28,132 bases of DNA from Streptomyces sp. NBC_01283 (GTDB lineage: Bacteria; Actinomycetota; Actinomycetes; Streptomycetales; Streptomycetaceae): assembly GCF_041435335.1 (NCBI RefSeq), contig NZ_CP108434.1:1-28132 (forward strand), written 5' to 3'. The notes beneath the pieces are model-generated. The model saw only the letters and a program-made list of their open reading frames with translations. It was not told the DNA's origin and searched no databases. This document shows, one piece after another, positions 24,409 through 24,914 of the stretch; the first letter of the stretch is position 1, and each line of letters starts with the position of its first letter. The position numbers and the translations under genes were made by a program.

Positions 24409-24914
24409 CGCCGGTCCTCTCGGAAGCAGACCGGGTTCAGGCCGACTGCCTGACAGTGGACGACGCTTGCCAGGACGCTGCTGAGGGGCAGGCACTCCCA
24501 CAGGTCGATGGCGGGGAATTGCTCCCATCCTTTACCCTGCGTCAGTTCTGCGGCGGAGGGGGGGGGGGGGGGGGGGGGGGGGGGGGGGGGGGGGGGGGGG
24601 GGGGGGGGGGGGGGGGGGGGGGGGGCGTCGCCCACGTGGCCGCGCAGTCGCACCGTGAAGTACCGCTCGCAGAGCTGGCTGTCGCCATCGAGCGCAGCCA
24701 ACTGGGAGAGGACTTCTGGACACCAGGGCAGAGCCCGACTCAACCGACCGCAGGATGTCCGCCAGATGCCACCAAAGCTCTCGGGGGCATCAAGTCGGTA
24801 CCACCAACCGGCTGTTGTCCTGACCTGGGTGAGGCCGAGGGCAAGGGGCCCCTTCTTAGCCGAGGCGTCTAGCCAAGAAGGGGGGCGTTTAAAGTCGTGA
24901 ACTGCCTGGGTCAT
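24405..24914 (-). CDS. Hypothetical protein interrupted by a 22-proline tract, coupled to the ATPase gene
   Basis: A 169-residue frame from ATG 24914, with AGAGGG six bases upstream. Residues 1-97 look like ordinary protein (KRPPSWLDASAKKGPLALG, WYRLDAPESFGGIWRTSCG, ALPWCPEVLSQLAAL). Then come 22 prolines encoded by the C strand of a 68-nt G/C homopolymer, and 50 more residues (GWEQFPAIDLWECLPLSS, ASVVHCQAVGLNPVCF). The stop overlaps the ATPase start (ATGA), so the gene belongs to the same unit. The two flanks are in one frame only because the tract is 68 nt long. If the tract is a sequencing artefact, the true middle is missing. No family recognised; a small replication partner of the ATPase is possible. 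Confidence 0.7.
   Translation of the reverse strand: MTQAVHDFKRPPSWLDASAKKGPLALGLTQVRTTAGWWYRLDAPESFGGIWRTSCGRLSRALPWCPEVLSQLAALDGDSQLCERYFTVRLRGHVGDAPPPPPPPPPPPPPPPPPPPPPPSAAELTQGKGWEQFPAIDLWECLPLSSVLASVVHCQAVGLNPVCFREDRR
24558..24625 (+). repeat. 68-nt uninterrupted G homopolymer
   Basis: Sixty-eight consecutive G on the + strand, with an A before and a C after. It is C on the coding strand of the overlapping gene, giving the last two bases of an Ala codon and 22 Pro codons. Such length is unheard of to me in bacterial genes and matches the dark-base poly-G artefact of two-colour sequencers. A real hypermutable tract or G-quadruplex is the alternative. Confidence 0.95.
24849..24883. repeat. 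9-bp inverted repeat near the 5' end of the proline-tract gene
   Basis: CCCCTTCTT (24849-24857) and AAGAAGGGG (24875-24883), perfect arms with a 17-nt loop, within the first 25 codons of the - strand gene starting at 24914. It could form an mRNA hairpin affecting early translation. Confidence 0.35.

What the first reader, a model, noticed from the sequence alone, without database searches (positions are those of the whole stretch)
24558..24625. 68-nt G homopolymer inside a coding gene
An uninterrupted run of 68 G lies in a gene that keeps one reading frame on both sides and is ATGA-coupled to a DUF927-like ATPase. If real, it would encode 22 prolines, form a strong G-quadruplex and be extremely slippage-prone, making it an on/off switch for a replication-type gene pair. 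The likelier explanation is a poly-G artefact of two-colour sequencing or a mis-joined gap, since tract length is far beyond known contingency loci and Streptomyces lacks such tracts to my knowledge. Frame agreement across it has a one-in-three chance by luck.
Basis: partly seen in the sequence, partly recalled or inferred. Interest (0 to 1): 0.7.

Follow-up and report, generated by a model that had tools for sequence, protein, structure and literature searches.

The report
Probable sequencing error inside bacterial gene
A run of 68 identical DNA letters sits inside a bacterial gene whose known relatives lack it at that spot, so it is most likely a sequencing or assembly error rather than a genetic switch.

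Summary
The run is present in the deposited sequence: exactly 68 G at 24558-24625. It is an outlier in its own genome: the seven other G/C runs of 10 or more found there are 10-11 long. It lies in a 169-residue minus-strand ORF (24405-24914) that overlaps an ATPase gene by ATGA. Homologues show what belongs there: 22 of 22 have exactly three residues (17 of them ATL or ALL) between the same neighbours; the window has GDA plus 22 prolines. The two sides abut in all 22, so nothing is missing and no gap was mis-joined: the tract is an insertion. The residues just before it look out of register with the family by one nucleotide, a second anomaly within 10 nt. Best reading: an erroneous insertion from sequencing, assembly or polishing (about 0.75). 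Main rival: a real, gene-damaging expansion; the genome has no MutS match, and 153 of 392 assemblies of the same genus (unnamed by the tool, taken as Streptomyces) hold a run of at least 20 G. A functional on/off switch has little support (about 0.05). No reads could be inspected.

The parts
24558..24625 (+). 68-nt G homopolymer (poly-C on the coding strand; gene nucleotides 290-357); 66 nt of it code for 22 prolines
24405..24914 (-). 169-residue ORF that holds the tract; 22 residues longer than P0001 and P0002 (147 each), all 22 being the prolines
24624..24632 (-). three codons before the tract (GDA) where 22 homologues read A/G, T/L, L/V/I; apparently out of register with the family by one nucleotide
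22324..24408 (-). ATPase gene, perhaps primase/helicase-like (694 residues from the ATGA-coupled start); aligns without interior disruption with the 8 homologues that I aligned
25078..25410 (-). 110-residue first gene of the conserved cassette, 71-75% identical to the matching gene in three other loci

Best explanation
The G68 tract is an erroneous insertion in the consensus of contig C5, made in sequencing, assembly or polishing, in an otherwise ordinary gene. The gene itself encodes a short protein (147 residues in its closest relatives) that resembles a stand-alone copy of the N-terminal part of the ATPase encoded just downstream, in a three-gene cassette also found in three other actinobacterial loci. 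Shown: the tract is an insertion with nothing missing, at a place where none of 22 homologues varies in length, next to codons that depart from the family. Inferred: that those codons are displaced by one nucleotide, and that a local assembly or polishing step filled in G's; the exact route is not known.
For: 22 of 22 homologues have exactly 6 residues in the block where the window has 28, none with a proline insert. Both flanks match P0001 without gaps (75% over its residues 1-95, 94% over 98-147; alignment), so they belong together. Before the tract the window reads GDA, where the first residue is A in 21 of 22 homologues (G in P0043), the second T or L in 22 of 22 and the third L, V or I in 22 of 22. 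In L143 the ATL codons are GCT ACG CTC, and the window's GCGACGC just before the tract looks like the same stretch displaced by one nucleotide. Run lengths in the genome jump from 11 to 68. The insertion point lies inside a region that the downstream ATPase shares, again without extra length (hhalign probability 97.3, E 1.7e-11, no gap at the site). Of 118 G/C runs of 20 or more examined in other assemblies of the genus, 46 lay near a stretch edge (one of them, in L212, only near the edge of what I fetched), 13 within 60 nt of N's and 27 beside another run of at least 10, leaving 32 clean; L214 shows G25, ten N's, C23. Spurious indels at homopolymers over 14 nt are reported for Illumina (passages of PMC8808543).
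Against: The reading frame is kept across the tract (1 in 3 by luck). It is the only such run in the genome, so it is no systematic fault of this assembly. The rest of the cassette looks intact, so the contig is not generally poor. Terminal G40+ runs of IMG/VR contigs are not clearly poly-G when read outward (58 outward, 48 inward), as read-end dark cycles would predict. The empty site is no strong hairpin that would stall a polymerase (about 15% of 5602 windows fold as strongly). The DNA of the closest homologues could not be fetched, so the register anomaly rests on L143 and on the protein pattern. No reads were seen.
Confidence: 0.75

Rival explanations
1. The tract is real: a recent G:C expansion (slippage or untemplated synthesis) in one lineage that lacks MutS-type repair. 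It damages the small gene and perhaps its coupling to the ATPase; it is neutral or decaying and not a selected switch.
For: No MutS_V match in the genome, while the same search rings in 11 of 14 control genomes. M. smegmatis NucS does not repair 1-2 nt indels (passages of PMC11551767). 153 of 392 assemblies of the genus hold a run of at least 20 G, including 9 of the 25 assemblies of at most 5 contigs among G001-G060 (read off). Single-contig G013 has a G44 run that is missing from the 5 of 5 relatives whose upstream flank could be aligned (loci).
Against: Those other tracts seem to avoid genes: of 20 on chromosome-scale contigs none has clear coding sequence on both sides, against 124 of 320 control positions (the test is insensitive and also fails on the window's own gene). 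68 is longer than 31 of the 32 clean interior tracts. No intermediate length is known in this genome or at this site. The register anomaly beside the tract needs an extra event. Whether the tracts in other assemblies are real was not tested.
Confidence: 0.19
2. A real contingency locus: slippage in the tract switches the small gene, and through ATGA coupling the ATPase, on and off.
For: The frame is kept; a tract 1 or 2 nt longer would end the ORF after 127 or 124 residues, before the ATPase start; the genes overlap, as they seem to in L141-L143.
Against: 0 of 22 homologues have a tract at the site. The insert interrupts a region of fixed length. The length is far beyond the contingency loci I recall (recalled, no call). 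Of the papers that hold Streptomyces, phase variation and homopolymeric (11, of which 10 were listed) or Streptomyces and poly-G tract (1), none shows such a case in Streptomyces by title and start of abstract; I saw the listings only.
Confidence: 0.05
3. Mis-joined gap: two unrelated pieces were joined through poly-G.
For: Some tracts in other assemblies of the genus do lie by N gaps (13 of 118).
Against: Both sides match the same homologues in order and without missing residues.
Confidence: 0.01

Closest known systems
Poly-G artefact of two-colour sequencing
   Same: A long pure G run with no counterpart in homologues; no signal is read as G (passages of PMC12774610; passages of PMC11140927).
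   Different: Here the tract is interior, single in the genome, and both flanks are complete; a dark read alone would not come back to the next base of the template (inference).
Homopolymeric contingency loci (phase variation)
   Same: Homopolymer inside an ORF whose length sets the frame, with an overlapping downstream gene.
   Different: 68 nt, none of 22 homologues with a tract at the site, a region of fixed length is interrupted, no length variants known.
DUF927 / plasmid primase-helicase proteins
   Same: The neighbouring ATPase has a GKT Walker-like motif (by eye); one homologue, P0027, has a weak Toprim match (E 0.038, below cut-off).
   Different: No Pfam or NCBIfam match for the window's protein itself.

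Membership tests
Sequencing/assembly artefact | Tract absent from homologues at a position of fixed length | tested here: met
   22 of 22 homologues
Sequencing/assembly artefact | Tract absent from independent reads of the strain | not testable with these tools
   no reads held
Sequencing/assembly artefact | Similar tracts elsewhere in the same assembly (systematic fault) | tested here: not met
   only run of 20 or more in 9.59 Mb
Homopolymeric contingency locus | Tract at the site in relatives, with varying length | tested here: not met
   0 of 22
Homopolymeric contingency locus | Length variants within a culture | not testable with these tools
   needs reads
Homopolymeric contingency locus | Length change alters the reading frame of the gene | tested here: met
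   one or two more nucleotides give stops after 127 or 124 residues
DUF927 (PF06048) | Match over Pfam's gathering score | tested here: not met
   no match for the window's ATPase; relative P0030 12 bits against a cut-off of 22.6

The most novel reading that the evidence does not exclude
A real 68-nt G:C tract in a plasmid-type Streptomyces gene, kept in frame, that works as an extreme, MutS-free slippage switch (or G-quadruplex block) on a primase/helicase-like gene pair; it would be among the longest of a wider class of long G tracts in genomes of this genus.
Probability: 0.05. Interest if true: 0.75.

Novelty: not a real feature. Interest (0 to 1): 0.15.

Why it matters
As an artefact it matters for data quality: the predicted protein carries a false proline stretch. 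If the tract were real it would be an extreme among bacterial homopolymers and a cue that genomes without MutS tolerate long G tracts. The side result (runs of at least 20 G in 153 of 392 assemblies of the genus) deserves a long-read check of its own.

Tried and rejected
Mis-joined gap: rejected, since homologues are contiguous across the site. Polymerase stall at a hairpin: not supported (the inverted repeats are short or imperfect). Second, tract-free copy in the genome: none found with P0001 (three matches, all on C5: the two halves of this gene and the ATPase) or P0005. DNA of the closest homologues (P0001, P0002): not reached. Plasmid and phage searches gave no match, nor did two scans of viral contigs or the first scan of genome contigs; the second gave L141-L143. 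The DNA of the gene's 5' part matched only the own genome among 199 of the genus, the ATPase only the own genome among 100 relatives. P0001 gave weak matches in five other genomes out of 392 (G078, G106, G310, G321, G365; best E 1.8e-12); I did not add these to the alignment. A DNA-level frame test over other tracts was insensitive and classed the window's own tract as unclear. In one search, of 73 runs with enough flank, 70 were unclear, 2 out of frame, 1 between opposite strands, none in frame (control positions: 162 of 407 in frame). In one search, outside the chromosome-scale set, 44 of 79 places had enough flank: 1 in frame, 3 shifted, 9 coding on one side, 31 neither. One search used a badly placed N in my pattern and says nothing. 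Structure prediction: one job was accepted and failed, so no model was made and the effect of the insert on the fold is inferred from alignment alone. Paper searches were read as listings; passages were read of PMC11140927, PMC12774610, PMC8808543 and PMC11551767. None of the listings showed a case like this one by title and start of abstract.

Full report
Observation. The window holds an uninterrupted run of 68 G at 24558-24625. About 1e-30 are expected by composition. The window is the whole of contig C5 (28,132 nt) of a 9,594,106-nt, five-contig genome. No other run of at least 20 G or C was found in that genome. A search for 10 or more, with another base before them, gave eight places; seven are 10-11 nt long and the eighth is this one. 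The length distribution therefore jumps from 11 to 68.

Gene. The run lies in a minus-strand ORF, 24405-24914, of 169 residues, at gene nucleotides 290-357. The ORF ends in ATGA, overlapping the start of the ATPase gene 22324-24408. Neither protein matches Pfam or NCBIfam. The ATPase has 35 homologues at E up to 0.001 among the 8000 candidates scored, and aligns without interior disruption with the 8 that I aligned. Upstream lies a 110-residue gene (25078-25410) that is 71-75% identical to the matching gene in L141, L142 and L143. These three loci (two named Streptomyces, one 'Actinobacteria bacterium OV450') carry the same three genes in order, and the second and third appear to overlap by GTGA or ATGA. 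The small protein is related to the N-terminal part of the ATPase (probability 97.3, E 1.7e-11; tblastn), so it looks like a stand-alone copy of that part. DUF2637 at 20396-21049 fits a plasmid or integrative element by recall, and one homologue, P0055, is named as plasmid-borne. 'Primase/helicase-like' is an inference from a Walker-like motif seen by eye and a weak Toprim match of one homologue.

What belongs at the site. A first search gave 3 homologues, a profile search 21, these 3 included. I aligned the 21 and the L143 gene with the window; L141 and L142 are represented by P0049 and P0052, which come from contigs of the same lengths. All 22 have exactly six residues in the block where the window has 28. 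Eight of the 22 lack part of the N-terminus (P0045, P0048, P0049, P0050, P0052, P0054, P0055, P0056); the block is complete in all. Blocks such as RVATLS, HVATLS and QLALLC stand against the window's HVGDA, 22 prolines, S. The window's ORF exceeds its closest relatives (147 residues) by exactly the 22 prolines. So the tract is an insertion of 22 codons into a site of fixed length, with no residue missing on either side; P0001 matches the two sides at 75% and 94% identity. Five weak matches of P0001 in other genomes were left out of this count.

A second anomaly. The three residues before the prolines are GDA. In the 22 homologues the first is A in 21 and G in one (P0043), the second T or L in all, the third L, V or I in all. 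In L143, the only locus with DNA at hand that reads ATL, the codons are GCT ACG CTC. The window's nucleotides there look like the same stretch displaced by one nucleotide. The codons of the closest homologues could not be fetched, so this rests on L143 and on the protein pattern. Two faults within 10 nt are easier to explain by a local consensus error than by evolution, but a real expansion with a nearby slip is not excluded. The kept frame is the main item in favour of a functional tract and has a one-in-three chance by luck.

Which artefact. In two-colour chemistry no signal is read as G (PMC12774610, passages), but dark cycles normally use up template; the right flank would then start some 68 nt later than it does. 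The homologues show that it starts at once. A single dark read is thus not enough: an assembler, gap filler or polisher must have extended into G's and then closed on the true right flank (inference). The empty site is no outstanding hairpin. But these terminal runs are poly-G read outward in 58 and inward in 48, so the clustering may only mean that assemblies break at homopolymers, and I give it little weight. Illumina indels at homopolymers over 14 nt are reported (PMC8808543, passages), so even a real tract need not be 68 long.

Are long G runs foreign to the genus? Not in assemblies: 153 of 392 genomes hold at least one run of 20 or more with a non-G base before it, and so do 9 of the 25 assemblies with at most five contigs among G001-G060 (read off). 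Only the first places of each genome were listed. I examined 98 loci (30 that came, 68 that I picked as interior and fetched, several of which proved to end near the tract), with 118 runs. 46 were near a stretch edge (one, in L212, only near the edge of the fetched part), 13 within 60 nt of N's, 27 beside another run of at least 10, and 32 clean; the clean ones have median 26 and one above 68, the C202 of L218. On chromosome-scale contigs, none of 20 tracts had clear coding sequence on both sides (17 on neither, 3 on one), against 124 of 320 control positions. The window's tract would be unusual in that class by lying inside a conserved gene, though the test does not recognise the window's own gene as coding. 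Elsewhere 4 places had coding sequence on both sides in one strand, 1 in frame and 3 shifted. Whether the clean interior tracts are real is open. Lack of a MutS match and the failure of M. [quoted passage not shown] whether this genome has NucS was not tested.

Verdict. Most likely an erroneous insertion (0.75); a real but non-adaptive expansion next (0.19); a switch 0.05; a mis-join 0.01. The decisive evidence, reads across the site, was not available.

Noticed in passing
one search set; e.g. L144, L216, L222, L251-L253: 153 of 392 assemblies of the genus hold a run of at least 20 G; of 20 tracts on chromosome-scale contigs (20-44 nt) none has clear coding sequence on both sides. This may be a real class of intergenic tracts.
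   Followed up: partly
L218:1019-1220 (G211 contig C38): A run of 202 C in the interior of a 459,754-nt contig.
   Followed up: no
window 22324-25410: Conserved three-gene cassette (110-residue gene, small protein, ATPase) found in three other loci; the small protein looks like a stand-alone copy of the ATPase's N-terminal part and has no Pfam match.
   Followed up: partly
window 727-5340: Two tandem genes, each a family 2 glycosyltransferase fused to a CDP-glycerol glycerophosphotransferase domain, as in teichoic-acid synthesis.
   Followed up: no
window 22312-24375 (+): A 687-codon open frame antisense to the ATPase; probably a by-product of GC-rich codon usage.
   Followed up: no
L214:1202-1259: G25, ten N's, then C23: mirrored homopolymers on the two sides of a scaffold gap in another assembly of the genus.
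   Followed up: no
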